Assembly: GCF_004340785.1 (NCBI RefSeq)
Contig: NZ_SLXS01000008.1
Span: 1-64,000 of the forward strand
Direction of reading: 5' to 3'
Source of the DNA: Tumebacillus sp. BK434
GTDB lineage: Bacteria; Bacillota; Bacilli; Tumebacillales; Tumebacillaceae
Length of the DNA: 64,000 bases
In this document: piece after piece, positions 13,312-28,525 of the stretch
Position numbering within the stretch: position 1 is the stretch's first letter
How the letters are laid out: each line of letters starts with the position of its first letter
Position numbers and translations under genes: made by a program
The notes under the pieces: model-generated
What the model was told of the DNA's origin: nothing
Seen by the model: only the letters and a program-made list of their open reading frames with translations
Database searches by the model: none

Positions 13312-14412
13312 ATGAAACAAACCTCTGAAATGACCGAAAGATATTCCGGGCTGCGCACACCGCAGTTCCGGGTGGAAGGGCTCGACGTGGAGACGTACCA
13401 CGACGGCGTCGTTGTGCTTGATTTGGAGATGAACGTGCTGGCGGTCAACAAGACGGCTGCCGATTTTCTGCCCGGCGACTGGTCGGGTGAGTTGCCGAAG
13501 CAGCTTCGGGACGTGTTTCCGGAGATGACCGAAGAATACGAGTGGCTGTCGCGACTGGTGCGGGAGCGAAGTTGCTTCCGCAACCACATCGTCAACTTGT
13601 CGCGCGACGGGAAATTGCGGACGCTGCTCTCCGACAGCTCGTTTTTGCGGGAAGCGGACGGGGCGCAGGCGGGGATCTGCCTGTTTTTGAAAGACATCGG
13701 CAACATCGTGTCACTCGAGCAGAAGATCCAGCACAACGAGATTCTCGCCACCGTCGGCAAGATCGCCGCCGGGGTGGCGCATGAGATCCGCAACCCTTTG
13801 ACGTCGATCAAAGGGTTCCTGCAGATCATGCGCCATGAGCTGGACAAACAAGGGATGAAAAAGGAGTTTAGCTACACCGATGTGATGCTGGCCGAGATCG
13901 ACCGGGTCAATGAGCTGGTCGGCGAGCTGCTCTTGCTGTCCAAGCCGCGGGAGCTGCGCATGGAGCATCTGGAGATGGAAGAGCTGATCATGGCGATGGC
14001 GCCCTTGATCTCGTCGGAGTCGCTCCTGCACAATATCGAGTTCCACCTCAGCCTGAAGTCGGTGCCGAAAGTGTACGCCGACCCGGAGATGCTGAAGCAG
14101 GTGCTGCTCAACCTCGTGAAAAATGCGATCGAGTCGATGTCCGAAACGGCAGGCGGCAAGATGGTCATCGCCACCGACTACCTGCAGGGCGAGCGGATGG
14201 TGCGGGTCGATGTGCAGGATACGGGGCCGGGGATTCCGCACTATCTGGTCGATCGGATTTTCGATGCGTTCTTTACGACGAAAGAGACGGGAACGGGCCT
14301 TGGCCTGCCGATCTGCCAGCGCCTGGTCAACGATCTCGGCGGACGGATCAAAGTGAAGACGAAAGGCTATGGCACGACGTTTTCCGTGTTTTTGCCGGCG
14401 CTGGCGGAGTAG
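13312..14412 (+). CDS. PAS-domain histidine kinase, soluble, sporulation-kinase-like
   Basis: 366 residues. An N-terminal PAS-like sensor domain lies at about 24-135 with no membrane segment. A HisKA domain follows with phosphorylated His157 (GVAHEIRNPLTSIKGF). The HATPase domain carries the N box (NLVKNAIES), G1 (VQDTGPGIP), F box (FDAFFTTK) and G2 (GTGLGLPIC). No response regulator gene is adjacent, typical of orphan phosphorelay kinases (KinA-E type) that feed Spo0F. The signal is unknown. GGGGGGA lies upstream of the ATG. The assignment to sporulation is inference. Confidence 0.85.
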   Translation: MKQTSEMTERYSGLRTPQFRVEGLDVETYHDGVVVLDLEMNVLAVNKTAADFLPGDWSGELPKQLRDVFPEMTEEYEWLSRLVRERSCFRNHIVNLSRDGKLRTLLSDSSFLREADGAQAGICLFLKDIGNIVSLEQKIQHNEILATVGKIAAGVAHEIRNPLTSIKGFLQIMRHELDKQGMKKEFSYTDVMLAEIDRVNELVGELLLLSKPRELRMEHLEMEELIMAMAPLISSESLLHNIEFHLSLKSVPKVYADPEMLKQVLLNLVKNAIESMSETAGGKMVIATDYLQGERMVRVDVQDTGPGIPHYLVDRIFDAFFTTKETGTGLGLPICQRLVNDLGGRIKVKTKGYGTTFSVFLPALAE

Positions 14413-14530
14413 AATTTTCAAGGAAAAGAGGGGCTCTGCACAGGGAGAGCCTCTTTTGCGTTCGTCCAAAAACTGTGTTACTCTTAAAGTTGAACATCTA
14501 TGTGTTTTACTAGGGAGGGGTTCGCTTACC

Positions 14531-16375
14531 ATGGCTTATATCGCGTTGTATCGGGAGTGGCGGCCCCAACTTTTTCGAGATATTGTCGGGCAGGAACACG
14601 TGACGCGAACGCTGCAAAACGCCATTCGGCAGCACCGCTTTGCCCACGCCTACCTGTTTAACGGACCGCGCGGGACGGGGAAGACGTCGGCGGCGAAGAT
14701 TTTGTCCAAAGCGATCAACTGTGAGCAGGGGCCGGCCGAAGAGCCGTGCAACGAGTGCCATGCCTGCAAAGGCATCACCAAAGGCACGATCATGGACGTG
14801 ATGGAGATCGACGCCGCGTCGAACCGCGGGGTCGATGAGATCCGCGACCTGCGCGACAAGGTGAAGTTTGCGCCGACCGAAGTGCGGTACAAAGTCTATA
14901 TCGTCGACGAGGTGCACATGCTGACGACGGAGGCGTTCAACGCGCTTTTGAAGACGCTGGAAGAGCCGCCGCCTCACGTGATGTTTATCCTCGCGACCAC
15001 CGAACCGCACAAGCTGCCGGCGACGATCATCTCGCGCTGCCAGCGCTTCGATTTCCGCCGCATCATGGGGCGCCCGATCGTCGACCACCTGCGCTCCATC
15101 GCCGAGCAGAAGTCGGTCGAGGTCGAAGAGGAAGCCTATTGGATGGTCGCGCGCGCCGCGGAGGGCGGGATGCGCGACGCCTTGTCAATTTTTGATCAGT
15201 TGATCTCCTTTGGCGGCGACAAGGTGCGCGCCAGTGACATCATCTCGATGGTCGGCGCGATCGGCACCGACGTGCTGGCCCGGCTCGCGGAAGGTGTGGC
15301 GGAGCACGATGCGCCGAAAGCGCTCGGCATCATCGGGGAGCTGATGGACAAGGGCAAAGACGTCGGGCAGCTCTTGCACGACATCGTGACCTATTTCCGC
15401 GACCTCTTGATGTACAAGACGGTGCCGCACCTGGAAGAAGTGCGCGACCGCGCCAACTACGACCGCGATTTTGCGGAAGTGGCGGGGAAGTTTGAAATAC
15501 CGCTGTTGATCCAGCTGATCGAGCAGATGACGCAGGTGCAAAATGAGTTGAAGTGGCAGTCGCAAGGGCGCCTGCTGCTCGAGATGCTGGTCGTGCGCCT
15601 GTGCCAGATGCAGTCGTTCGATCCGGAGTCGCTGCTCAAGCGGATTCAGGAGCTGGAGGCGAAGATCGCGGGCGGCCTGCCTGCTGCCCCGACGGGGCAG
15701 ATGCCGCAGGGCCAACAGCCGTCGCCGATGCAGCAGATCCAGATGCCTCCGCAGACGATGCAGTCGGCTCCGCCGATGCCGCAAGGACAGCTGCACCAGC
15801 AGCCGCCCCAACAGCAGATGCAGACGCCGCGTCCGGCACCGACACCAGCACCGGCCGCACCGCAGCAGCAGGCAGCGCCCGCGCCGGCCGCTGCTGCTCC
15901 GGCACCAGCGCCTGCTCCGCAGGGCGGAATGCTGTCCGGCGGTCTGGATAAGATTGTGACCCATCCAAGCCCCGAAGCGCTCGCCCACGTGCGCCAGTTC
16001 TGGCCGCGCGTGCTCGATGATGTCAAAGCGCGCAAGATCACCGCACAGGCCTGGCTGCTCGCCGGGACCCCGGTCGCGGTCGACAACGGGTACATCGTGG
16101 TGGCGTTCAAGAGCCCGATCCACAAGGAGACGGTGATGAAGCCGATCCACCGCGAGATCATCGAGCCCGTCTTTACCCAACTGATGAACGGAACGCCCCA
16201 CCAGCTGTATGCCGTCATGGAGACGGAGTGGGACAAGTTCCAGGCCCATTTCCAAGCGGGCGCCGCATCGGCTGCACCCGAGCAGCCGGCGGCCGCCGAG
16301 GAAGAAGCGAAAGACGCACTGGTCGAGAAAGCCCAGGCGCTTTTTGGTTCTGAGCATCTTGAAGTGGTCGAATAA
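14531..16375 (+). CDS. dnaX: DNA polymerase III gamma/tau subunit
   Basis: Clamp-loader ATPase. 614 residues. Walker A G45-PRGTGK-T52; zinc cysteines 64, 73, 76 and 79; Walker B D126-E127 (IVDEVHML); sensor-1 SRC motif. A Q/P/A-rich linker spans roughly residues 385-475. The C-terminal tau region contacts the polymerase and helicase. Start MAYIALYREWRP matches the family, with GGGAGGGG about 11 bases upstream; the longer frame overlaps the kinase gene. First gene of dnaX-yaaK-recR. Confidence 0.96.
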   Translation: MAYIALYREWRPQLFRDIVGQEHVTRTLQNAIRQHRFAHAYLFNGPRGTGKTSAAKILSKAINCEQGPAEEPCNECHACKGITKGTIMDVMEIDAASNRGVDEIRDLRDKVKFAPTEVRYKVYIVDEVHMLTTEAFNALLKTLEEPPPHVMFILATTEPHKLPATIISRCQRFDFRRIMGRPIVDHLRSIAEQKSVEVEEEAYWMVARAAEGGMRDALSIFDQLISFGGDKVRASDIISMVGAIGTDVLARLAEGVAEHDAPKALGIIGELMDKGKDVGQLLHDIVTYFRDLLMYKTVPHLEEVRDRANYDRDFAEVAGKFEIPLLIQLIEQMTQVQNELKWQSQGRLLLEMLVVRLCQMQSFDPESLLKRIQELEAKIAGGLPAAPTGQMPQGQQPSPMQQIQMPPQTMQSAPPMPQGQLHQQPPQQQMQTPRPAPTPAPAAPQQQAAPAPAAAAPAPAPAPQGGMLSGGLDKIVTHPSPEALAHVRQFWPRVLDDVKARKITAQAWLLAGTPVAVDNGYIVVAFKSPIHKETVMKPIHREIIEPVFTQLMNGTPHQLYAVMETEWDKFQAHFQAGAASAAPEQPAAAEEEAKDALVEKAQALFGSEHLEVVE

Positions 16376-16401
16376 CATATTCTGTTATGAGGTGACATGA
16401 G

Positions 16402-16713
16402 ATGAAAAACATGCAACAACTGATGAAGCAAGCGAAGAAAATGCAAGACGACATGATGAAAGCACAAGAAGAACTCGGCAACAAGACGGTCGAAGGCTCC
16501 GCTGGCGGCGGCGTTGTGACCGCCGTTGTCACCGGCCACAAAGTGGTGCAGGCGATCAACATCAAGCCGGAAGCGGTCGACCCGGACGATGTGGAAATGC
16601 TGCAGGACCTGGTGCTGGCTGCCGTTAACGATGCGATGAAGAAAGTGGACGAAATGACCGCTGCATCGATGGGCAAATACACCAAAGGCATGAACATGCC
16701 GGGCCTGTTCTAA
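16402..16713 (+). CDS. yaaK: YbaB/EbfC family nucleoid-associated protein
   Basis: 103 residues, starting [22 protein letters not shown], the typical YbaB amphipathic helix, and ending PGLF. Binds DNA as a dimer. GAGGTGA precedes the ATG. Between dnaX and recR as in nearly all Bacillota. Confidence 0.95.
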
Positions 16714-16721
16714 GCGGACCG

Positions 16722-17327
16722 ATGCTCTATTATCCGGAACCCATCTCCAACCTGATCGACGGGTTCTCCCGGCTGCCGGGCATCGGGCCGAAGACGGCCC
16801 AGCGCCTCGCGTTTCACGTGCTCGGGATGAAGGAAGATGACGTGATGGATCTGGCCAAGGCGCTGGTCAATGCCAAGCGCCACCTGCATTACTGCTCGGT
16901 GTGCCAGAACATCACCGACATCGACCCGTGCCGGATCTGCTCCGACCAGAGCCGCCGCCGCGAAGTGATCTGTGTCGTGCAAGACCCGAAAGACGTGGTG
17001 GCGATGGAAAAAACCCGCGAGTTTGGCGGGTTGTATCACGTGCTGCACGGGGCGATCTCGCCGATCGAAGGCGTCGGCCCCGATCAGATCCGCATCGCCG
17101 AACTGCTGCGCCGCCTGCAAGACCCGGAAGTGGAGTGCGACGAGATCATCATGGCGACCAACCCCAACATCGAAGGGGAAGCGACCGCGATGTACCTCTC
17201 CCGTCTGCTCAAGCCGGTCGGCATCAAAGTGACCCGCATCGCCCACGGTCTGCCCGTCGGCGGCGACCTCGAATATGCGGACGAAGTCACCTTGTCGAAA
17301 GCGTTGGAAGGCAGACGCGAGCTGTAA
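16722..17327 (+). CDS. recR: Recombination mediator RecR
   Basis: 201 residues. A helix-hairpin-helix lies at about 10-35 ([14 protein letters not shown]). The C4 zinc finger uses C58, C61, C70 and C73. The Toprim domain starts [14 protein letters not shown], and a C-terminal Walker-B-like segment ends the protein. Works with RecF/RecO in gap repair. Start is eight bases after yaaK, with a weak ribosome site. Confidence 0.96.
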
Positions 17328-17349
17328 ATTTAGATTTACTATCATTGAA

Positions 17350-17395
17350 GAGAGCCAATTCCTGCATATGAATGCAGGGTTGGCTCTTTTTTAAT
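17350..17395 (+). terminator. Terminator after recR
   Basis: AGAGCCAA / TTGGCTCT outer stem with inner TGCAT/ATGCA pairing, followed by TTTTTT. Confidence 0.88.
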
Positions 17396-17491
17396 TTTTA
17401 CTAACTCCCAAGATAGGACTTTTTCACCTGATGACGAAATATACAGTAGTCTTATTTACCTATCTATTCCAGACATGGGAGGGACAACAGA

Positions 17492-20400
17492 ATGGGCAAA
17501 CGACTCAGGCGACAGACGCTCTCGATCTTGCTGATCGTTACGCTTGTCGTATCATCTCTGCTCCAAAGCTTCTCCACCAAGGCCAGCGCGGCGGCAGGGA
17601 ACGAGTGGGACCCGCTGCTCGACTGGCTGCCGGAGAACGGCCAGACGTTCGATCCGGCAGGCGACATCATCAGCGCTGCGGTCAGCGGGCAGAACCATAC
17701 GACGGGCGGGACTGGAAATGCCCCGATCGTCGAAGCGGCCGATCCTGCTCCGGCCACACCGCAGGAGCCGGTCAACATCGCCACCGGGGCATTGGTGCTG
17801 ACCGAGACCGATTTTTCCTACAGTTCGTACGGACCGAAGCTGGAGATCGCCCGCTCGTACACCAGTGACAAGACGGACAACAAGACGATGTTCGGCCACG
17901 GCTGGTCGATTCCGCAAGAGCGCCGGCTGCAGATCTATGCCGATTTTGCGATGGCCGACCAGAAGGCGGACGGCACGGTCGAAACGTACGTCTACACGAA
18001 AAACGATCCGGACATGATCGTCGAGACGTATGACGGCGACGACACGATCTGGTATCCGCTGCATCTCGGCAGCTATGCGGCGCAAGACGCTGCGAACAAA
18101 AAAGAGCTGATCCGCCGCGGGCCGACCGACTACCTGCTGCGCGAGCCGCAGGGCGGCACGAACTACGCCTTCCACGGCTACTACGCCAAGTGGCGCACCG
18201 ACGCGCCGAAGACGGCAGGCAAGCTGCTGCGCTACGCGGACAACGTGACCGGCCTCACGATGTTCCTCGAGTACGATGAACAGGGCCGGATGAAGAAAAT
18301 GCAAGGCAACACCCGACCGTCCTTGACGTTTGGCTACCAGGGGGCTTCGACTCTCGTGTACAGCGTCACCGACCTTGGCGGACTGGTTTACTATTATGGC
18401 TACGATGCCAATGAAAACTTAACGAAAGTCACCCGTCCGGACGGCTCGAAGGTGGAATACACTTACGACAGCAGCCACCGCATCACCTCGCGTGCGGAAA
18501 ACGGGGTGGCGACCTATTTCGAATACAGCGGCGGCAAAGTCTCCGCGATCAAAGACGCTAAGAAACGCACGCTTTATTCCTACACCTATGAAGGCAGCAA
18601 AGTCACCCGCACCGATTCGGACGGCCATCGCACCGTCTACACGATCGGCGCGAACCAGAAGATCACGCAAAAGGTCGACCCGGACGGCACGACGACCTCG
18701 TACGCGTACAACGCGGACGGCAAAGTCACGTCGCTGACCACGCCGCAGGGCACCACGACGATGGAATACGATGCGAAAGGCAACATGACCCGCCGCGTCG
18801 AGCCGCTGGGCCGCGAGACGCGCATCCAATACCATGCGGTGTTCGACAAGCCGATTCGCATCGTCCAGCCGGGCGATGCCGTGTGGGAGTATACTTACAC
18901 CGACCGCGGCGCCGTGCAGTCGGTCAAAGAGCCGAGCGGCAAAGTCACGAACAATGAAGTGTCGTGGTTCTGGCAGGTCGTGCTCTCCCGCACCGACAAC
19001 GCCGAGCGCGTGACGACGTTCGACTACAACGACTACGCAGAACTGTCCGACATGACCGACCCCAAGGGGCAAGTCACCTCGTTTGTTTACGACAACTCCA
19101 ACCGGCTGAAAGAAGTGCATTATCCGGGCGGCAAGAAACTGACCCTGGAGTACCAGGGCGGCAACCGCAAGCCTTCCGTCACGACCGGCCCGATGGGGCT
19201 GAAGACGCGCGCCGAGTACGACAAAGGCCGTCTGGTGCGCGAATACGACGAGCTGAACAACCTCACCGCCTATGAGTACAACGACCTCGGCCAATTGGCA
19301 CGTAAAATCGAGCCGGGCGACCGGGTCACCGCTTACACGTACACACCGCTTGGGCAATTGGCATCGGCCACCTATCCGGGCGGGCGCACCGTCAGCTACA
19401 AGTGGGATGCAAACGGCCGCCTCCAGAGCAAAGCGGGCACCGGCGTCATCGCCACGTCCTACGAGTACGACATCTACGGCAACGTCGCAGCTGTCACCAC
19501 GCCCAAGGGCACCACGCGCTACGAGCGTGACGCGCTGGGCCGCGTGACCCAAGAGATCGACCCGCTGAAGCAGGAAACAAAATACACCTACAACGCAGCC
19601 GGCCTCGTCGCCACCGTGCAGGATGCCAAGAACCAGACGGTCTCCTTCACCTACGATGCTGACGGCCAAGTGCTGACCAAGACCGACCCGATTGTGCGGA
19701 CCGAGAGCTATACCTACGACGACCTCGGCAATCCGCTGACCGTCACCGACGCCGAAGGGCGCGTTACCCGCTACCAATACAACGTGATCGGGCAGCTGGA
19801 ATCTGTCACCGACCCGCTGAACCGCGTCACGAGCTACACCTACGACGCGACGGGGAACAAGCTCTCCGAAACGTTCGGCAGTTTGACCACCCGCTACGAG
19901 TACGACGCGGCCGGCCGCATGAACAAGCGGATCAACCCGGCGGGCGGCGAGACCGAGTACACGTACGACCCAAAAGGGCAACTGCTCTCGACCAAGGACC
20001 CGCGTGGGAAAACGACCACTTATACGTACAACCCGGCCGGTCAGCTCCTCACGCAAAAAGACCCCTTGGGCAATGTCTACACGTTCAGTTATGACGCAGC
20101 CGGGCGGCTCTCCGGCGTGAAAGATCCAAAAGGGCATGAGGTCGCCTACAAATACGACCTGACCGCCCGCACCACCGAAGTGGTGAAAGATGAGCAGCTC
20201 AAAGTCCGCTATCAGTATGATGAAGCGGGCAACCTGGTCTCCTTCACCAACTCGCGCAACCATGTCACGCGCTACGAGTATGACGCCGCCAACCGCCTGA
20301 CGAAAACGATCACGCCGGCCGGCGAAATCGCGTATGCCTATGACGTGCTGGGCCAGTTGACTTCGGAAACCGACCCGCTCAAACATACCACGCGCTACAC

Positions 20401-23400
20401 CTATGATGCGCTGGGCCGAGTTTTGACGGTGACGAACAAGGCGAACGAAGTCACCGCCTATACGTATGACCCGCAAGGCCGCTTCACCGAAGTCCGCCTG
20501 CCGAATGGCACCACCGAGCGTACTGAGTACAATCTGGCCGGACAAGTGACGCTGGAACAAGATGCGGGCGGCGGGCAGACGAAATACGAGTATGACGCGC
20601 TGGGCCGCCTGACCCAAAAGACCAACCCGCGCGGCCACTTTGCAACGTATCAGTACGACAAGCTGGGCCGTCTGACCGCAGTGACCGACCCGAAAGGCTA
20701 CAAGACGGCGCTCACCTACGATGCCAACGGCAACCTGCTTTCCCGCACCAACGAGTTGGAGCAGACGTGGAGCTACGTCTATGACGATGCCAACCGGCTG
20801 ACCGCAGTGAACAACCCGCTCCATCAGCAGACGAAATACGAATACGACAAAAACAGCAACCTCACCCGCGTCATCGACGTGATGAACCGCGAGACGATCC
20901 TCGCCTACGATAAGTTGAACCGTCTCACCGCCACCACCGACACCGGCGGTTTTACCACGCGCTACGAGTATGACGGAGAAGACAACCTCCTGCGCGAGAT
21001 CGACCATGACGGCGTGGCGAAAGAGTACACCTACGACGCGCTGAACCGCGAAGTGGCAGTCAAAGACCGCGAAGGCAACACCACGACCACCTCGTACGAC
21101 GCGCGGGGCAATGTGACCGGCACGGTCGATGCGAACGGCGCGGCGAGCTCCTACGCCTATGACGCGATGGGACGCCTGACCAGCGTCACCGATGCCAAAC
21201 AGGGCGTGACACAGTACCGGTACGACGCGATGGGCAACCAGACGGAGCAGATCGATCCGCTCGGCCACAGCACCGTCTGGGCGTATGACGCGATGTCGAA
21301 CGTCACGTCCGAACGAGACGGCGAAAACGGCGTCACCCGCTATGAGTACGACCGCATGGGCAACCAGACCGCCCGCATCGACGCGCTCGGCAAACGCACC
21401 GAGTACGCGTATGATGAGCGTCAACTCCTGACGGCGATTCAAACGCCGGGCGAGACCCCGTCCCTTTTTGAATACGACGAGATCGGCCGCCTGACCCGCG
21501 CGAAAAACGGCGCGCTGGAAGAAGTCTATTCCTATGATGGGCTCAACCGCGTGACGGCCGTGACCAACCCGCAATTGAGCAAAACGGTGTCCTACGAGTA
21601 CGACGCAGTTGGCAACCGCACGAAGATCACCGACCCGGAAGGACGCGTGATTTCCTATACGTATGATTCGCGCAGCCAGATCCGGTCGATGACCGACCCG
21701 GAAGGCCTGGTCACCTCGTATGCGTACGATCCGTACGGCCAAGTGACGGAGATCAAAGGCGGCGACCAGACGGTCACCAGCTACACCTACGACCACAACC
21801 GCCGTCCGACCAAGATTCACACGACCACGACGACCGGCGTGCTGTCGACATTCAACTACACCTACGACGGTCTCGGCAACATCCTGACCCAGACCGAAGA
21901 AGACGGCGCGGTCACCCAGTTCACCTATGACAAGCTGAACCGCGTGGTCGAAGCCCTGTACCCGATTGAAAAGATCAAAACCATCCGCAACACCTACTAC
22001 ACCCCGCCGCTGAACAAACTATTCCCGAATGGTGCAGACGGCTCCGGCGAGGTCGACACCTCCGCCCCGAAAGTCCCGCAAGCCGCCCAAGGCGGCAACA
22101 GCGCCGGCGAAGTCAAAACCCCCGGCAACGGCAATGGAGGCGGAAACGGAAACGGGAAAGGCAACTCTGGGAACAATGGCAATGGGAATGGCAACTCAGG
22201 AAACAATGGCAATGGCAACGGGAATGGAAAAGGCAATGGCGGCGACAAAAACCCGAACAGCCCTGGCAACGGCCATGCGTACGGCAAAAACAAGCGCACC
22301 GGCACAGTCCCGAGCGACTACACGCCGGAGATCCTGCAGGAACTGGGGTATCCGCCGAGCTACGTCCCGGAAGACCCGGACTTCTTCCTGAACCCGGTCG
22401 AGCGCGTCACCTACACCTACGACGCAGCGGGCAACCGCACCAGCATGACCGACGACTACGGCCTTGTCACTTATACCTACGACAAAGCCAACCGCCTGAC
22501 CGACGTCGACGGTGACACCTACACCTACGACGCCAACGGCAACCTGACCTCAAAGATGACCGCATACGGCCAGGTCAACTACAAATACAACGCGGACAAC
22601 CTGCTGACCGAAGTCAACTATCCGGACAAGACCTACGTCCACTACGAATACGACGCATTCGGACGCAAAGTATCCCGCGACGAGCAATACTACGACCTGA
22701 ACGGCCCCGGCGCCTCAATGGGCAACGGCCAAGCCATCCTCCCCAGCACCGGCAACAACGGGAACGGCAACGCCTACGGTCTTGAAAAGAACCCGAACAA
22801 AGGCAACAACGGTAATGGAAATAACGGAAACGGAAACGGCAACAACGGAAATGGAAATGGTAATAACGGCAATGGAAACAATGGTAATGGCAACAACGGC
22901 AATGGCAACAACGGCAATGGCAACAACGGCAATGGCAACAATGCTGGCCCAGGTGGTGTCATCAAGAACTACCACCTGAAAAAAGAGCAGACCGACTACC
23001 TCTACGACGGTAACGCCCTGCTCAGCGAATACAACGGTAAGACCGGAGAGACCTTCGCCCAGTACTACCGAGGTGCCGATGACCAAGTCGTCTCCCGCAA
23101 AATGTTTGGTTTCCAAGGCCGCAAAGAGCAAGGCTACCTTGGCAACCTGCGCGACCGCGGACATCACCTGTTCTACCACTATGACGGCATGGGCAACGTC
23201 ACCGACCTGACCGACTACCTCGGCAGCGAAGTGCTGAAGTACCGCTACGACGCATTCGGCGGCGTCTTCACCCAGCTCTGGACACCGTACAACCAAGTCG
23301 GACTGACCGGCAAAAGCTACGACATCAAAGCCAGCCTCATGGACTACAGCGCCCGCTGGTACAGCCCCTCGGTGGGCCGATTCACCACGCAGGACACATG

Positions 23401-24796
23401 GACCGGCCTCGGTGATCTCCCGCAGACGCTGAACCGCTATGCGTATGCGTTGAACAACCCGATCAACATCACCGACCCAAGCGGCCATGCACCGTGCTAT
23501 GAGGACGACAACGGAGACCTCCGCTGCGGCTATTCCCCGAACCCCGACGACTGGGGCAACCGAGGAGGCGGAAGCGGAGGAGGAGGAGGAGGAGGCACCG
23601 ACAACGGCTGGACCCCGCCGCCACCGCCACCACCGCCCAACCCGGACGAACTCGAACCGCCGCCACTCCCGCCGTGGATGAACAAAGACGGCCGGATTGC
23701 GACCCTGCTTGAAAAGGCTGGCATGTCGCCGCAAGAGATCTCAATGATGTTCCAACTCCTCTCAGCCGGAGTCGACTCAATCCCTGTCCTTGGGAACATC
23801 AAATCAGCAGTCGAAGCGATCACCGGCTACGACATCATCTCCGGCGAAAAACTCGGCTTCTGGGACCGCGCCGTCTCCGGCGTCACCGCCCTCATCCCAG
23901 GCGGAGGAGCTTTAAAGAACGCCCTCAAAGCCGGAATGAAGACTGCCAAGGCGCTCGACAAAGCGGCCACCATAGAGCGGAAACTTGACGACGTCCCGAT
24001 AGGCTGCGGCAACTGCTTTACCGCTGGAACCCTCATCGAAACTGAAAACGGCAAAAAGCCGATCGAGGAGATCGACGTCGGCGACAAAGTCCTATCCAAA
24101 GACGATGCTACGGGAAAGATCGCCTACAAAGAAGTCAACGGAACCTTCCAAAGAGATACCGAAGAGATATATACTATCCAAATAGGCGATCAAAAGCTGA
24201 CCACTACTGGCGAGCACCCCTTCTACGTCCACAACCACGGCTGGGTGCGTAGCAAAAACTTAAAAGCTGGTGATCGTCTCGATACGGCATCGGGTATGAC
24301 GCTTGAAGTTCAAGACATTCAGGTCAAGCAGGAGACCATCCGTGTCTATAACTTCAGTGTAACTGACTACCACTCGTATTTTGTGTCAGACCAAAAAATC
24401 TGGACACATAATACTAAGACCTGTCCGATTTTTGGGTCAAAGGATTACCAGGCACGATTCCAGGCGGAACTCGGTAGGTCTCAGTATCCGGGACATGAAC
24501 TTCACCATGGTTACCCTCAGCAATTTGAGGCAGATTTTAGGAATGCTAATATAGATATACATGCTCCCAAAAATATCTACGAACTTCCAGAACCATTACA
24601 TCGTACAGTTACCGTAAATGGGGAGAAGTATCGTACAGGAGTTCATTCTGCACCTTTAGAAACTTCCTGGAATGGACAATGGAGAGAATTTTTCAGAGCA
24701 AATCCGAATGCTTCAGCTGAAAGTATGGAGAAGTTCCGCGAGAAATTAGGAAATGATTTTGCGATTAATAACTATTTGGGAGGTGTTAAGAAATGA
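17492..24796 (+). CDS. Secreted RHS/YD-repeat polymorphic toxin with HINT domain and SitA-like HH-motif toxin tip
   Basis: 2434 residues. A Sec signal peptide ends near KASA. An N-terminal DUF6531-like segment lies at about 90-170 (PVNIATGALVLTETDF, FGHGWS). A very long YD-repeat shell runs from about 240 to 1510, repeating Y-x-Y-D-x-x-G-x-L. Two Gly/Asn-rich linkers lie near 1545-1595 and 1755-1821. The RHS core motif (RWYSPSVGRFTTQDTW) is near 1955-1970. Then come a poly-Gly/poly-Pro spacer, a pretoxin-TG-like segment (ITGYDIISGEKLGFWDRAV), and a HINT domain from C2175 to H2306-N2307. The final 127-residue tip contains H2335-ELHH2339 and WNGQWREFF. The tip resembles TIGR02269/DUF2380-type SitA toxins, recalled from family knowledge; it is probably a nuclease of HNH-like fold. 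GGGAGGG precedes the ATG. The immunity gene overlaps the stop. Confidence 0.88.
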   Translation: MGKRLRRQTLSILLIVTLVVSSLLQSFSTKASAAAGNEWDPLLDWLPENGQTFDPAGDIISAAVSGQNHTTGGTGNAPIVEAADPAPATPQEPVNIATGALVLTETDFSYSSYGPKLEIARSYTSDKTDNKTMFGHGWSIPQERRLQIYADFAMADQKADGTVETYVYTKNDPDMIVETYDGDDTIWYPLHLGSYAAQDAANKKELIRRGPTDYLLREPQGGTNYAFHGYYAKWRTDAPKTAGKLLRYADNVTGLTMFLEYDEQGRMKKMQGNTRPSLTFGYQGASTLVYSVTDLGGLVYYYGYDANENLTKVTRPDGSKVEYTYDSSHRITSRAENGVATYFEYSGGKVSAIKDAKKRTLYSYTYEGSKVTRTDSDGHRTVYTIGANQKITQKVDPDGTTTSYAYNADGKVTSLTTPQGTTTMEYDAKGNMTRRVEPLGRETRIQYHAVFDKPIRIVQPGDAVWEYTYTDRGAVQSVKEPSGKVTNNEVSWFWQVVLSRTDNAERVTTFDYNDYAELSDMTDPKGQVTSFVYDNSNRLKEVHYPGGKKLTLEYQGGNRKPSVTTGPMGLKTRAEYDKGRLVREYDELNNLTAYEYNDLGQLARKIEPGDRVTAYTYTPLGQLASATYPGGRTVSYKWDANGRLQSKAGTGVIATSYEYDIYGNVAAVTTPKGTTRYERDALGRVTQEIDPLKQETKYTYNAAGLVATVQDAKNQTVSFTYDADGQVLTKTDPIVRTESYTYDDLGNPLTVTDAEGRVTRYQYNVIGQLESVTDPLNRVTSYTYDATGNKLSETFGSLTTRYEYDAAGRMNKRINPAGGETEYTYDPKGQLLSTKDPRGKTTTYTYNPAGQLLTQKDPLGNVYTFSYDAAGRLSGVKDPKGHEVAYKYDLTARTTEVVKDEQLKVRYQYDEAGNLVSFTNSRNHVTRYEYDAANRLTKTITPAGEIAYAYDVLGQLTSETDPLKHTTRYTYDALGRVLTVTNKANEVTAYTYDPQGRFTEVRLPNGTTERTEYNLAGQVTLEQDAGGGQTKYEYDALGRLTQKTNPRGHFATYQYDKLGRLTAVTDPKGYKTALTYDANGNLLSRTNELEQTWSYVYDDANRLTAVNNPLHQQTKYEYDKNSNLTRVIDVMNRETILAYDKLNRLTATTDTGGFTTRYEYDGEDNLLREIDHDGVAKEYTYDALNREVAVKDREGNTTTTSYDARGNVTGTVDANGAASSYAYDAMGRLTSVTDAKQGVTQYRYDAMGNQTEQIDPLGHSTVWAYDAMSNVTSERDGENGVTRYEYDRMGNQTARIDALGKRTEYAYDERQLLTAIQTPGETPSLFEYDEIGRLTRAKNGALEEVYSYDGLNRVTAVTNPQLSKTVSYEYDAVGNRTKITDPEGRVISYTYDSRSQIRSMTDPEGLVTSYAYDPYGQVTEIKGGDQTVTSYTYDHNRRPTKIHTTTTTGVLSTFNYTYDGLGNILTQTEEDGAVTQFTYDKLNRVVEALYPIEKIKTIRNTYYTPPLNKLFPNGADGSGEVDTSAPKVPQAAQGGNSAGEVKTPGNGNGGGNGNGKGNSGNNGNGNGNSGNNGNGNGNGKGNGGDKNPNSPGNGHAYGKNKRTGTVPSDYTPEILQELGYPPSYVPEDPDFFLNPVERVTYTYDAAGNRTSMTDDYGLVTYTYDKANRLTDVDGDTYTYDANGNLTSKMTAYGQVNYKYNADNLLTEVNYPDKTYVHYEYDAFGRKVSRDEQYYDLNGPGASMGNGQAILPSTGNNGNGNAYGLEKNPNKGNNGNGNNGNGNGNNGNGNGNNGNGNNGNGNNGNGNNGNGNNGNGNNAGPGGVIKNYHLKKEQTDYLYDGNALLSEYNGKTGETFAQYYRGADDQVVSRKMFGFQGRKEQGYLGNLRDRGHHLFYHYDGMGNVTDLTDYLGSEVLKYRYDAFGGVFTQLWTPYNQVGLTGKSYDIKASLMDYSARWYSPSVGRFTTQDTWTGLGDLPQTLNRYAYALNNPINITDPSGHAPCYEDDNGDLRCGYSPNPDDWGNRGGGSGGGGGGGTDNGWTPPPPPPPPNPDELEPPPLPPWMNKDGRIATLLEKAGMSPQEISMMFQLLSAGVDSIPVLGNIKSAVEAITGYDIISGEKLGFWDRAVSGVTALIPGGGALKNALKAGMKTAKALDKAATIERKLDDVPIGCGNCFTAGTLIETENGKKPIEEIDVGDKVLSKDDATGKIAYKEVNGTFQRDTEEIYTIQIGDQKLTTTGEHPFYVHNHGWVRSKNLKAGDRLDTASGMTLEVQDIQVKQETIRVYNFSVTDYHSYFVSDQKIWTHNTKTCPIFGSKDYQARFQAELGRSQYPGHELHHGYPQQFEADFRNANIDIHAPKNIYELPEPLHRTVTVNGEKYRTGVHSAPLETSWNGQWREFFRANPNASAESMEKFREKLGNDFAINNYLGGVKK
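22125..22260 (+). repeat. Gly/Asn low-complexity linker 1 in the RHS gene
   Basis: Runs of GGN/AAN codons encode GN-, GNG- and GNN-type units, with a few Lys and Ser. It separates the last complete YD repeats before residue 1540 from a further short YD block. Confidence 0.75.
22755..22955 (+). repeat. Gly/Asn low-complexity linker 2 in the RHS gene
   Basis: About 25 near-exact 9- or 12-base units of the GGCAATGGCAACAAC type encode NNGNG repeats. The units between 22860 and 22945 are almost identical, so recent slippage is likely. Confidence 0.8.
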
Positions 24797-25383
24797 GATT
24801 TTATGAGATCAGAGAAAAAAGCGAATCTTTTGCGCAAGTGTATTCAACTCCGGAAATGAAATTTATGGAGCGATGCACTGCATGTGGAAGAGGGGGAGAG
24901 AGAGTCCCCCCTCTCTCTATTAAATTCGATAGAAGAAATATTCCTGATTTAAGTTTCTATCCACCTGATATATTAGTTACCGACCGGGTGAAAGCAATGT
25001 TTGAGCAGCAAGGTATTCGCGGTGTAGAATTCTTGGAGGTATCGTATCAAGGGGATCCACAACTGTTACAGGGGAAAAGAATCTGGCATTTTAACGTGGT
25101 GGCGAAAGTTAAGGCATCTCCTGAGTGCAATATCATGTTGTTGAAAAACTGTGAAGTTTGTGGCCGAAAAGAATACTCAACTTGGGACGGTGGATTAATA
25201 GCATCTCAAGAGGATGCAAAGAGATATGACGTTTTTCGTATCGAGGAACATTGGGGTTATGTATTTATCAATGAGCGTGTAAAGAAACTTATCATAGAAA
25301 ACGATTTTGTAAATGCTAAATTTATTGAAGACAAAGAAGTGAAAGATACACTTGCGTGGATGCGACCAAAAGTAGATTACTGA
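24793..25383 (+). CDS. Double-CXXCG immunity protein (SitI-like) for the RHS toxin
   Basis: 196 residues. Its ATG overlaps the toxin stop as ATGA, so translation is coupled. Two CXXCG motifs are seen: CTACG near residue 28-32 and CEVCG near 118-122. This is the layout of the Myxococcus double-CXXCG family (TIGR02264), whose SitI members protect from SitA toxins; the link is recalled, not searched. The protein is cytosolic, without signal peptide. Base composition is clearly AT-richer than the RHS shell, as in the toxin tip. Probable role: binds and blocks the tip at residues 2308-2434. Confidence 0.75.
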   Translation: MRFYEIREKSESFAQVYSTPEMKFMERCTACGRGGERVPPLSIKFDRRNIPDLSFYPPDILVTDRVKAMFEQQGIRGVEFLEVSYQGDPQLLQGKRIWHFNVVAKVKASPECNIMLLKNCEVCGRKEYSTWDGGLIASQEDAKRYDVFRIEEHWGYVFINERVKKLIIENDFVNAKFIEDKEVKDTLAWMRPKVDY

Positions 25384-25404
25384 AATGATTAAGGAGCACC
25401 TTTT

Positions 25405-25452
25405 AAAGAACCTCAAAATAGCCATTACAAGCTATTTTGAGGTTCTTTATTA
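25405..25452 (+). terminator. Terminator after the immunity gene
   Basis: Eighteen-base perfect stem AAAGAACCTCAAAATAGC / GCTATTTTGAGGTTCTTT with a short loop. Confidence 0.9.
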
Positions 25453-25628: not shown

Positions 25629-26580
25629 TCAGACAGCTTTTTTAAGGGCTTCTTGGCGATACTGAACAGGTGTCAGATATCCCAACTTTCCATGAATCCG
25701 ATGCTAGTTGAACCAGTTGACATAATCGAATAATTCCATTTCCAGATGACGGAGACTCTGGAATCTCATCTGGTGGATGAACTCGGTTTTCATAACATTG
25801 TAGGTGGCTTCGGCCACGGCATTGTCATAGGACAGCCTTTCATACTTAGAGATCGGCCGATTTCAAAGGTCTCCAGAAGCTCATGAATCCTTTGATTTTT
25901 AAACTCGCTGCCGCGATCCGTATGAAACCACTGAATTTGACGCAAATCACCCTGTACCGTAGCAAAGGCGCGTGAAATCAGAGCAGCGTCCTTTTTTGGA
26001 CCTGCACTATGACCAATAATCTCTCGATTGAACAGATCGATGAGCACACAAATGTAATGCTACTTGTTTTGGACTTTCACATATGTAAGATCATTGGCGA
26101 CAAAGCGTTTGACTTCGGTTTGCTCAAACTCAAGATCCAGGACATTCGTTGTTGGTGATTCATTACAAGACGATTTATAGGGCTTATATTGGGCTATAGT
26201 GTAAGTGGAAACCAGCCCTTGCTCTTTCATGATCCGGCCAATGCGAAGCCTAGACACGAGGAAGCCTTGTTCCTGGAGCCTTACTTTGATCTTTCGCGTG
26301 CCGTATGCTTTTCGATTCTTGTTGAAAATCTCCACAATTGTTTCTGTGATTTTCTCCTCTTTTGCTTGTTCTTTCGCTTCGTAATAGAATGTACTTCTTG
26401 CGATTTGCAGGACGTCACACATTGCTGATACCGAGTATTTTTCACGGTTGTTCTGGATGATAGCTACTTTCGTCCCATGATCAGCGCCGCTTGCTTTAAA
26501 ATATCGTTCTCCATCCGCAGACGCTGAACTTCTTTCCTTAGAGCATTCAGGGTCAAGTATTCTCCTTCTAGGAACGGAAG
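25629..26580 (-). pseudogene. IS3-family (IS150-like) transposase remnant
   Basis: On the minus strand the C-terminal end of OrfA (LRKEVQRLRMENDILKQAALIMGRK, ending near 26475) overlaps OrfB. OrfB continues through MCDVLQIARSTFYYEA, an HTH_21 part (NRKAYGTRKIKVRLQ) and the rve/DDE core (FVANDLTYV, DRGSEFKN). An amber TAG at 26060-26062 interrupts the frame where Trp is expected, then a one-base deletion near 25838 shifts it. A second in-frame TAG follows before HRIHGKLGYLTPVQYRQEA. The N-terminal half of OrfA is not found and the right terminal repeat is not recognisable. The element is dead. Confidence 0.85.
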
Positions 26581-26788
26581 GAGATCCTGCTCAAGCAGGA
26601 AGCTTTATAGATTTCCAGACGACCAAGATCATCCTATACAACAATAATATTTGACAAAAAATGTATTCTTCAGAGGCTGCCTCAACGTGTAGACAAAGTA
26701 CCTATCGGTGCGAGGTATACACGCTTTTTTTGTCGTATTCTCTATTAGGTCAATCTGGTTCAACGAAACGGATTCCCATAGAAAGGCG

Positions 26789-27289
26789 ATGAAATCATTG
26801 AAAATTGATCCCTCGATGATTGAAAGGTTATCTCAGATAAAGTGGTTAAGTAACTGCGGTAGACCGCTCAATGATAACCTCAATCTAAACATCCGTTATA
26901 TTTCAAATTGGGAGGATGCAAAAAGAAATTATCTAAGTTCAACTTGGGAGGACACAACTCTAGTTGCTCGTAATGCTCTGACTATGTTTTTACACAAAAA
27001 GTATAGTAATCGCTACGATAACTGGAACAAACTCGTACGGGAAGCGAAGGCTATATTAGAGGAGCAGGTTTTCCTAACGATTGGAAATCTGAGCCAGGAG
27101 CACTCTTTGGATGAAAAATGGGTGGGTTTGGTCAAGTGGGATATTTTGAATGCAGTCATGGAAAATGCTTACCAGGATTGTGAGAATAGACCAACATTTT
27201 TTCTAGATTTACTCGAAGTGTATGAGGAAGGTAATTTCCCTTGTGGCTGGCAAGGAGATTGGCCAAAGGGTGAACTTGTGATTTTTTAG
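26789..27289 (+). CDS. Orphan immunity-type protein (hypothetical)
   Basis: 166 residues starting MKSLKIDPSMIERLSQI, with GAAAGG six bases before the ATG. No signal peptide or membrane segment. The acidic, aromatic C-terminus EVYEEGNFPCGWQGDWPKGELVIF resembles proteins I have seen next to Bacillus polymorphic toxins, but I cannot name the family. AT-rich and without a toxin gene directly upstream, which now carries the IS remnant. It is probably a displaced immunity gene kept after its toxin tip was replaced. Alternatively an unrelated cytosolic protein. Confidence 0.5.
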   Translation: MKSLKIDPSMIERLSQIKWLSNCGRPLNDNLNLNIRYISNWEDAKRNYLSSTWEDTTLVARNALTMFLHKKYSNRYDNWNKLVREAKAILEEQVFLTIGNLSQEHSLDEKWVGLVKWDILNAVMENAYQDCENRPTFFLDLLEVYEEGNFPCGWQGDWPKGELVIF

Positions 27290-28060: not shown

Positions 28061-28525
28061 ATGGTGCAGAAAAATTTAGTCGAACAACTTATGAATAATC
28101 GTTTGCTTAGAACAAAGGAGGAGATAGGCTTATTTGAAAGCTCTATTGAGTCGCTGATGGATCTCGGTGAAGAAAGTTTGATCTCGGACCTGTGTTCAGG
28201 TTTTGATGACTCAACGGAACATAATGAGGCAATGTTTGGGCTCGTACATGCAATAGAGTCTTTAGATATAGTTTATGGACAAGAGAACGCGCTTAGAAAA
28301 CTGGCAGGTTCACTTCCAGCGTTGTTTCCTCATGCAAAAGGTTGGGCAGTGATCCTTAACAAAAGAATCTTGAATCACGATCCAAGTCTAATCAAATACG
28401 CAGAAGTGGTGAAAGATCTTGATCCCGATAAAAAAGAGTTAATCACAAGTTTGGTTCGTGAAATTAAAGAAGAGCCTTCAAGAAAATTTGAAACAGCAGG
28501 GGCTACATTCCTAACACAAATGTAA
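28061..28525 (+). CDS. Imm30-like immunity protein
   Basis: 154 residues, all-helical prediction. The pattern FDDSTEHNEAMFGLVHAIESLD with KGWAVILNKRILN resembles the Imm30 family recalled from polymorphic-toxin studies. AGGAGG lies seven bases before the ATG. It appears intact while the toxin relic just upstream is broken, so the gene is an orphan that may still protect against siblings carrying the active tip. Confidence 0.6.
   Translation: MVQKNLVEQLMNNRLLRTKEEIGLFESSIESLMDLGEESLISDLCSGFDDSTEHNEAMFGLVHAIESLDIVYGQENALRKLAGSLPALFPHAKGWAVILNKRILNHDPSLIKYAEVVKDLDPDKKELITSLVREIKEEPSRKFETAGATFLTQM

What the first reader, a model, noticed from the sequence alone, without database searches (positions are those of the whole stretch)
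24011..25383. RHS-HINT protein carrying a Myxococcus SitA-like tip and a SitI-like double-CXXCG immunity protein
The final 127 residues after the HINT His-Asn carry H-E-L-H-H and W-N-x-x-W motifs, and the overlapping gene has two CXXCG motifs. In Myxococcus such pairs are delivered as lipoproteins by outer-membrane exchange. Here a Gram-positive RHS shell with a Sec signal and HINT release seems to carry the same toxin type, a different delivery route.
Basis: partly seen in the sequence, partly recalled or inferred. Interest (0 to 1): 0.75.

Follow-up and report, generated by a model that had tools for sequence, protein, structure and literature searches.

The report
Secreted RHS toxin with swappable nuclease
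A Gram-positive bacterium carries a giant, probably secreted weapon whose detachable tip looks like a DNA-cutting toxin also found in social myxobacteria, next to a matching antidote gene; it is a clear new example of a known kind of bacterial weapon in which the same warhead rides on different carriers.

Summary
The 127-residue tip after the HINT His-Asn matches Pfam DUF2380 above cut-off (30.2 vs 26.3 bits); the overlapping gene matches Gmx_para_CXXCG (28.9 vs 25) and Imm11 (28.2 vs 22.1). The stricter NCBIfam SitA6/SitI6 models are not met (22.6 vs 85.75; 18.8 vs 100.15): only the nuclease half is shared, not the lipoprotein. The tip profile aligns with pMF1.20 (probability 98, E 2e-13), a myxobacterial DUF2380 protein with published DNase activity (PMC6091211, passages). 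The immunity model, of low confidence, matches one structure, the Myxococcus Imm11 protein MXAN_0049. A genome of the same genus has the same RHS-HINT shell beside the same dnaX-ybaB-recR genes; DNA similarity stops 2 bases past the HINT end, and another DUF2380 tip with SUKH immunity follows. RHS shells with DUF2380 tips also occur in other Bacillota, Bacteroidota and Chloroflexota. Best reading: a WapA-like RHS-HINT polymorphic toxin with a DUF2380 DNase tip and Imm11-clan immunity. A new member of a known kind; "SitA-like" names a shared module, not an origin.

The parts
17492..24796 (+). RHS-HINT polymorphic toxin gene, 2434 aa, no cysteine before residue 2002 (hence no lipobox)
   Evidence: Pfam RHS_repeat 4e-222 with 44 stretches, DUF6531, PT-TG, PT-HINT
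17492..17596 (+). Sec-type signal peptide (basic n-region, hydrophobic core, ASA-A), residues 1 to about 35
   Evidence: read by eye from the translation; no predictor was run
23246..23488 (+). RHS repeat-associated core domain, residues 1919-1999
   Evidence: TIGR03696 65.8 bits, cut-off 32.5
23756..23950 (+). Pre-toxin TG domain, residues 2089-2153
   Evidence: PF14449 50.4 bits, cut-off 23.5
24014..24412 (+). HINT domain from Cys2175 (NCFTAGT), through TGEHPF, to His-Asn 2306-2307
   Evidence: PT-HINT 116.4 bits at 2181-2307, Hint_2 at 2175-2212; motifs located
24413..24796 (+). toxin tip, 127 aa plus stop, DUF2380-type nuclease domain (tip residues H31, H32, H63, H78, W86, N87, W90 conserved)
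   Evidence: PF09533 30.2 bits, cut-off 26.3; alignment A5; hhalign to pMF1.20
24793..25383 (+). immunity gene, 196 aa, Gmx_para_CXXCG / Imm11 clan, two CXXCG motifs
   Evidence: fold match to 6a4c
25404..25449 (+). 19-bp perfect hairpin just after the immunity stop, terminator-like
   Evidence: fold, -26.8 kcal/mol; not reported by the consensus scan
28061..28525 (+). orphan Imm30 gene downstream, similar DNA in the sister genome
   Evidence: PF15565 95.7 bits; blastn 28133-28510, 86.1%

Best explanation
This is a WapA-like, Sec-secreted RHS-HINT polymorphic toxin. The RHS repeats form the carrier shell, the HINT domain cuts the tip free at Asn2307, and the tip is a DUF2380-type nuclease of the HNH/AHH sort that most likely cleaves DNA in the cytoplasm of neighbouring bacteria. 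The protein encoded by the overlapping gene is an Imm11-clan, zinc-ribbon-like (two CXXCG) immunity protein that binds the tip and protects the producer and its kin. Tip and immunity gene are a cassette exchanged on a resident shell at the HINT junction. Shown here: domain homology, gene overlap, a tip and immunity difference between two genomes of the genus that begins at the junction, a fold match of the immunity model. Inferred: secretion, HINT cleavage, entry into targets, DNase activity, binding and protection, zinc binding.
For: DUF2380, Gmx_para_CXXCG and Imm11 over their cut-offs. Tip profile to pMF1.20: probability 98, E 2e-13, with HH, H and WN..W shared; pMF1.20 degrades plasmid DNA in vitro and pMF1.19 binds and inhibits it (PMC6091211, passages). 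pMF1.20/19 in the same libraries are clear positives (158.7 and 230.9 bits; TIGR02269 114 and TIGR02264 218.1), and their genes overlap by 4 bases as here. Immunity model: of 288 chains aligned, 6a4c (MXAN_0049) alone reaches Z 2 or more, at Z 8.4, 142 residues, rmsd 4.1; Foldseek probability 1.00, E 0.016. Sister genome: DNA 87.7% (14247-22723) and 85.2% (22894-24414) identical, ending 2 bases past the HINT end at 24412; another DUF2380 tip with SUKH immunity follows. G+C falls from 0.598 (shell) to 0.414 (tip) and 0.394 (immunity). The script found 7 distinct full-length tips after such a HINT end in the sister genome.
Against: The tip model (pLDDT 86.1) has no significant PDB match: best Foldseek E 2.1, in VIA only P1 Ref 3plw at Z 2.0. 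So an HNH/AHH fold is not shown by structure, and the tip hits no HNH or AHH Pfam model at E up to 1. The immunity model is weak (pLDDT 54.3, residues 1-58 under 50), so the part with the first CXXCG is untested. The immunity profile against pMF1.19 gives only probability 12, E 0.0024. In relatives the first CXXC is incomplete in L040, L041 and L042, and the G after it is absent in all five and in pMF1.19. The tip lacks one nearly invariant Gly (Asn46 here). The sister's DUF2380 tip pairs with SUKH, so DUF2380 alone does not predict the immunity type. No DNase, secretion or immunity has been measured in this organism.
Confidence: 0.82

Rival explanations
1. The same RHS-HINT weapon, but the tip is an RNase (for example a tRNase, as in WapA) rather than a DNase.
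For: WapA, a secreted contact-dependent toxin of B. subtilis, is a tRNase (PMC5566331, passages); the substrate cannot be read from the sequence or model here.
Against: The closest tested homologue, pMF1.20, digests plasmid DNA (PMC6091211, passages) and the tip profile aligns with its C-terminal half at E 2e-13.
Confidence: 0.12
2. The tip-immunity pair came to this lineage straight from a myxobacterial SitAI6 locus by recent horizontal transfer onto the RHS gene.
For: Shared domain families with pMF1.20/pMF1.19; the AU test does not reject window plus pMF1.20 as one clade (p 0.337); cassette G+C differs from the shell.
Against: Tip and immunity gene are A+T-rich (G+C 0.414 and 0.394), whereas Myxococcus DNA is G+C-rich (recalled). 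The tree puts the tip with L039-L042 at 95/99. Identity to the window tip is 31-35% for L039-L042 and 22% for pMF1.20. Only one myxobacterial sequence was in the tree.
Confidence: 0.05
3. The tip is degenerate or domesticated and no longer a weapon.
For: Long tree branch (5.04), a loop between H63 and H78 that is longer than in the nine relatives, a Gly after HH where eight relatives have I, V or L (one is cut), and Asn for a nearly invariant Gly at 46.
Against: The candidate catalytic residues H31, H32, H63, H78 and N87 are kept, both reading frames are intact, and the model is confident (pLDDT 86.1).
Confidence: 0.06

Closest known systems
pMF1.20/pMF1.19 of Myxococcus fulvus plasmid pMF1 (EU137666.1; PMC6091211, passages)
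   Same: DUF2380 protein with HH..H..WN..W and a downstream Gmx_para_CXXCG gene overlapping by 4 bases
   Different: pMF1.20 is a 240-aa protein with a lipobox-like N-terminus (LALAGC) and no RHS or HINT match; the tip here is the 127-aa end of a 2434-aa RHS protein without any early cysteine
SitA6/SitI6 toxins of myxobacterial outer-membrane exchange (TIGR02269/TIGR02264; PMC8546572 and PMC12077181)
   Same: C-terminal toxin half (TIGR02269 positions 118-191) and part of the immunity model (TIGR02264 positions 152-217)
   Different: no lipoprotein part, model cut-offs not met
WapA/WapI of Bacillus subtilis (PMC5566331, passages)
   Same: N-terminal secretion signal, C-terminal toxin, cognate immunity gene; its RHS/YD make-up is recalled
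   Different: the tip here is DUF2380-type and follows a HINT domain; WapA is a tRNase
MXAN_0050/MXAN_0049, AHH nuclease and Imm11 immunity of the Myxococcus T6SS (6a4c; PMC12077181)
   Same: immunity fold match and Pfam Imm11 over cut-off; the commentary places Imm11 and double-CXXCG in one clan, CL0767
   Different: T6SS delivery; the AHH Pfam model is not hit by the tip here
PTS I of 'Ca. B. vickermanii', an endosymbiont of Bodo saltans (PMC8163844, passages)
   Same: AHH-nuclease polymorphic toxin followed by an immunity protein that matches Imm43, Gmx_para_CXXCG and DUF1629, published in 2021 outside myxobacteria
   Different: another organism and another toxin; its shell was not compared here

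Membership tests
Pfam DUF2380 (PF09533) | score over the gathering cut-off | tested here: met
   30.2 bits vs 26.3 for the tip alone, positions 92-178 of 187; 23.6 when scored within the whole 2434-aa protein; 27.5 in the six-frame search
SitA6 (TIGR02269 equivalog) | score over the equivalog cut-off 85.75 | tested here: not met
   22.6 bits; pMF1.20 scores 114 in the same library
SitA6 (TIGR02269 equivalog) | lipoprotein N-terminus | tested here: not met
   no cysteine before residue 2002
SitA6 (TIGR02269 equivalog) | TraAB-dependent transfer by outer-membrane exchange | not tested
   no search for TraA/TraB was made; the transfer itself needs cells
SitI6 (TIGR02264 equivalog) | score over the equivalog cut-off 100.15 | tested here: not met
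   18.8 bits; pMF1.19 scores 218.1
Gmx_para_CXXCG (PF09535) | score over the gathering cut-off, two CXXCG motifs | tested here: met
   28.9 vs 25; motifs at 28 and 120
Imm11 (PF07791) | score over the gathering cut-off | tested here: met
   28.2 vs 22.1
Imm11 (PF07791) | Imm11 fold | tested here: inconclusive
   6a4c is the only VIA match, Z 8.4, but the model is of low confidence (pLDDT 54.3)
Tox-AHH / HNH-EndoVII nuclease | match to AHH (PF14412) or another HNH Pfam model | tested here: not met
   none listed for the tip at E up to 1
Tox-AHH / HNH-EndoVII nuclease | HNH/EndoVII fold | tested here: inconclusive
   no significant structural match; only P1 Ref 3plw at Z 2.0
RHS-HINT polymorphic toxin | RHS repeats, RHS core, PT-HINT and a variable C-terminal tip with adjacent immunity gene | tested here: met
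WapA-type secreted RHS toxin | export and contact-dependent inhibition of neighbours | not testable with these tools
   signal peptide read by eye only

The most novel reading that the evidence does not exclude
DUF2380 nuclease plus Imm11-clan double-CXXC immunity is an old, carrier-independent cassette of RHS toxins spread over several phyla, and the myxobacterial SitAI6 kin-discrimination toxins are a derived branch of it that acquired a lipoprotein escort. Entry of the same nuclease into Gram-positive cytoplasm must then use a wholly different import step, which this pair would let one compare directly.
Probability: 0.45. Interest if true: 0.5.

Novelty: new member of a known kind. Interest (0 to 1): 0.36.

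Why it matters
It ties a toxin family whose experimental record, in the papers I saw, is myxobacterial (outer-membrane exchange and plasmid pMF1) to the RHS-HINT weapons of Gram-positive bacteria, and gives DUF2380 and double-CXXCG proteins outside myxobacteria a concrete, testable function. The sister genome with the same shell, a 33% identical DUF2380 tip and an unrelated SUKH immunity gene offers a natural pair for asking how nucleases of one family come to be neutralised by different immunity folds.

Tried and rejected
Chance motifs: rejected for the double CXXCG (0 of 200,000 shuffles) and for the tip by profile scores.

Fold search of the tip: nothing significant. PDB sequence searches with the tip and its alignment found nothing credible; with P0002 alone only 9vt8 at E 0.73; with the immunity alignment 6a4c came first at E 0.012. 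P0003 by tblastn found no plasmid and no phage at E up to 0.01; the viral-contig scan gave no relative. P0002 has no match besides itself in 101 genomes at E up to 0.001.

DUF2380 rows dropped as probably spurious: L004 (20.6 bits, four stops inside), L032 and L033 (24.5 and 23.7 bits, one stop inside each), all under the cut-off. L003/L039 also has one stop inside but is over the cut-off (47.6 bits) and was kept, from after that stop.

A myxobacterial donor: neither shown nor rejected. One clade of all seven CXXC-immunity tips is not found in the tree (3 changes) and not rejected at 0.05 (AU p 0.0742).

Papers: in the listings and passages seen, none links DUF2380 with RHS. Searches: DUF2380 (2 papers); PF09533, PF09535, SitA6, Gmx_para, TIGR02269, TIGR02264 (8 listed, four of them unrelated by title); 'double CXXCG' with immunity (none).
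Full report
What is there. The gene at 17492-24796 (+) encodes a 2434-residue RHS protein: a basic, then hydrophobic Sec-type N-terminus (read by eye) without any cysteine before residue 2002, DUF6531, 44 RHS-repeat stretches, pre-toxin TG and PT-HINT, and the RHS core. The HINT begins at Cys2175 and ends at His-Asn 2306-2307. The remaining 127 residues are the tip. The next gene, 24793-25383, overlaps by 4 bases, has a Shine-Dalgarno-like GGAGG and encodes 196 residues with two CXXCG motifs. A 19-bp perfect hairpin follows its stop. The genes upstream are dnaX, ybaB and recR.

Families. The tip alone scores 30.2 bits against Pfam DUF2380 (cut-off 26.3), on model positions 92-178 of 187; within the whole protein it scores 23.6. 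The neighbour scores 28.9 against Gmx_para_CXXCG (cut-off 25) and 28.2 against Imm11 (cut-off 22.1). The NCBIfam equivalogs for SitA6 and SitI6 are hit at 22.6 and 18.8 bits, far below 85.75 and 100.15. As positive controls, pMF1.20 and pMF1.19 of the Myxococcus fulvus plasmid pMF1 score 158.7 and 230.9 in Pfam and 114 and 218.1 in NCBIfam. So the window pair belongs to the Pfam-level families and is not itself SitAI6.

Function of the closest tested relative. pMF1.20 was shown to degrade plasmid DNA in vitro, to be toxic in E. coli and to be bound and inhibited by pMF1.19 (PMC6091211, passages). The profile of ten DUF2380 tips aligns with the C-terminal half of pMF1.20 at probability 98, E 2e-13, with the HH, H and WN..W residues shared. 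The immunity profile aligns with pMF1.19 only weakly (probability 12, E 0.0024). The tested SitA6 alleles are described as AHH nucleases, PF14412, in PMC8546572 (section 9; other passages), yet neither the tip nor pMF1.20 is listed with PF14412; I could not settle this difference.

Structure. The tip model is confident (mean pLDDT 86.1) but has no significant PDB match; the only VIA row is phage P1 Ref, Z 2.0. The immunity model is poor in its first 58 residues (mean pLDDT 54.3); even so its only match among 288 chains with Z of 2 or more is 6a4c, MXAN_0049, Z 8.4, and Foldseek ranks it first with probability 1.00, E 0.016. MXAN_0049 is the immunity protein of the nuclease MXAN_0050, and Imm11 and double-CXXCG are placed in one clan (PMC12077181, part 1 of 2 read). 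This supports an Imm11-type fold by a second route.

A tip difference that begins at the junction. Genome G399 of the same genus shares DNA with the window from 14247 to 22723 (87.7% identity) and from 22894 to 24414 (85.2%), that is from dnaX through recR, shell and HINT; the match ends 2 bases after the HINT Asn codon. Behind it G399 has another DUF2380 tip (40.8 bits) and a SUKH immunity gene (48.6 bits). Similarity returns at the Imm30 gene (28133-28510) and from 28626 on. G+C drops from 0.598 in the shell to 0.414 in the tip and 0.394 in the immunity gene. The script picked 7 distinct full-length tips after such a HINT end in G399 (L011, L013, L015, L017-L020; the frames that hold them run from 585 to 2840 aa) and one short one (L029). 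I scanned the six that are not L015, and one from another contig of the window's own genome (L014): 3 of 7 hit a known toxin family (Tox-HNH-EHHH, GH-E, Tox-URI2). Exchange of tip and immunity at the HINT border is the plain reading of this.

Distribution. In the window's phylum 3 of 398 sampled genomes have DUF2380 over its cut-off, own genome included; in its class 4 of 398, own and sister included; in its genus 2 of 3. The phylum is inferred to be Bacillota, since the same-phylum G090 is the record L034. The genome-contig scan gave 9 loci. Of six toxin ORFs scanned, 4 pass the RHS-repeat cut-off and carry the DUF2380 tip: L034 Bacillota, L035 Mucilaginibacter, L038 Flavobacterium, L040 Chloroflexi; L036 and L037, with short frames, do not. 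L039 and L041 have short frames and L042 begins inside the tip; these three were not scanned for RHS. I compared 14 distinct DUF2380 toxins (window, L015, L030, L031, L034-L042, pMF1.20). The downstream gene is of the CXXC type in 7 (window, L034, L039-L042, pMF1): four exceed the PF09535 cut-off (window, L034, L042, pMF1), L040 is just below (24.6 vs 25), and L039 and L041 have no such match and are placed here by alignment A6. Two have SUKH (L015, L030), one is Imm43-like below cut-off (L031), three have no family (L035, L037, L038) and one is DUF1963-like below cut-off (L036). The second CXXC is complete in all seven, the first in four.

Phylogeny. With 14 rows and 91 columns the window tip joins L039-L042 at 95/99, but its branch is long, and neither union with pMF1.20 (p 0.337) nor with the SUKH tips (p 0.25) is rejected. 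I therefore make no claim about a donor.

Mechanism, with status. Secretion by Sec (inferred from the N-terminus); display of the RHS shell and release of the tip by HINT (inferred from intact motifs); entry into neighbours by an unknown step (inferred; WapA of B. subtilis is the model, PMC5566331, passages); DNA cleavage (inferred from pMF1.20); neutralisation by the 196-residue protein (inferred from gene overlap, family and fold). In print already: the catalogue of polymorphic toxins with RHS, HINT, AHH and Imm11 (PMC3482391, passages) and an AHH toxin with a Gmx_para/Imm43/DUF1629-like immunity protein outside myxobacteria (PMC8163844, passages). The finding is real, well classified and moderately interesting, not a new kind of system.

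Noticed in passing
L010, L011, L013, L014, L015, L017, L018, L019, L020, L029; window residue 2311: In 10 of 10 distinct HINT-borne tips that the script picked in two genomes, most of them otherwise unlike each other, a cysteine stands 2 to 4 residues after the HINT Asn; it may take part in release of the tip or mark the recombination border.
   Followed up: partly
window 26060-26422 (-): IS3-family transposase remnant (NF033516 88.6 bits, cut-off 160; HTH_21 in Pfam) between the immunity gene and the orphan Imm30 gene.
   Followed up: partly
window 26708-27289 (+): 193-aa ORF with no Pfam or NCBIfam match in an immunity island; perhaps another orphan immunity gene.
   Followed up: partly
L015 and L030: Two DUF2380 tips from two families of the window's class are followed by SUKH (SMI1/KNR4) genes instead of CXXC proteins.
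   Followed up: yes
L020 2349-3002 (reverse strand of the locus): A tip with a PHH motif in the sister genome is followed by a protein with several CXXC pairs; possibly another zinc-ribbon immunity type.
   Followed up: no
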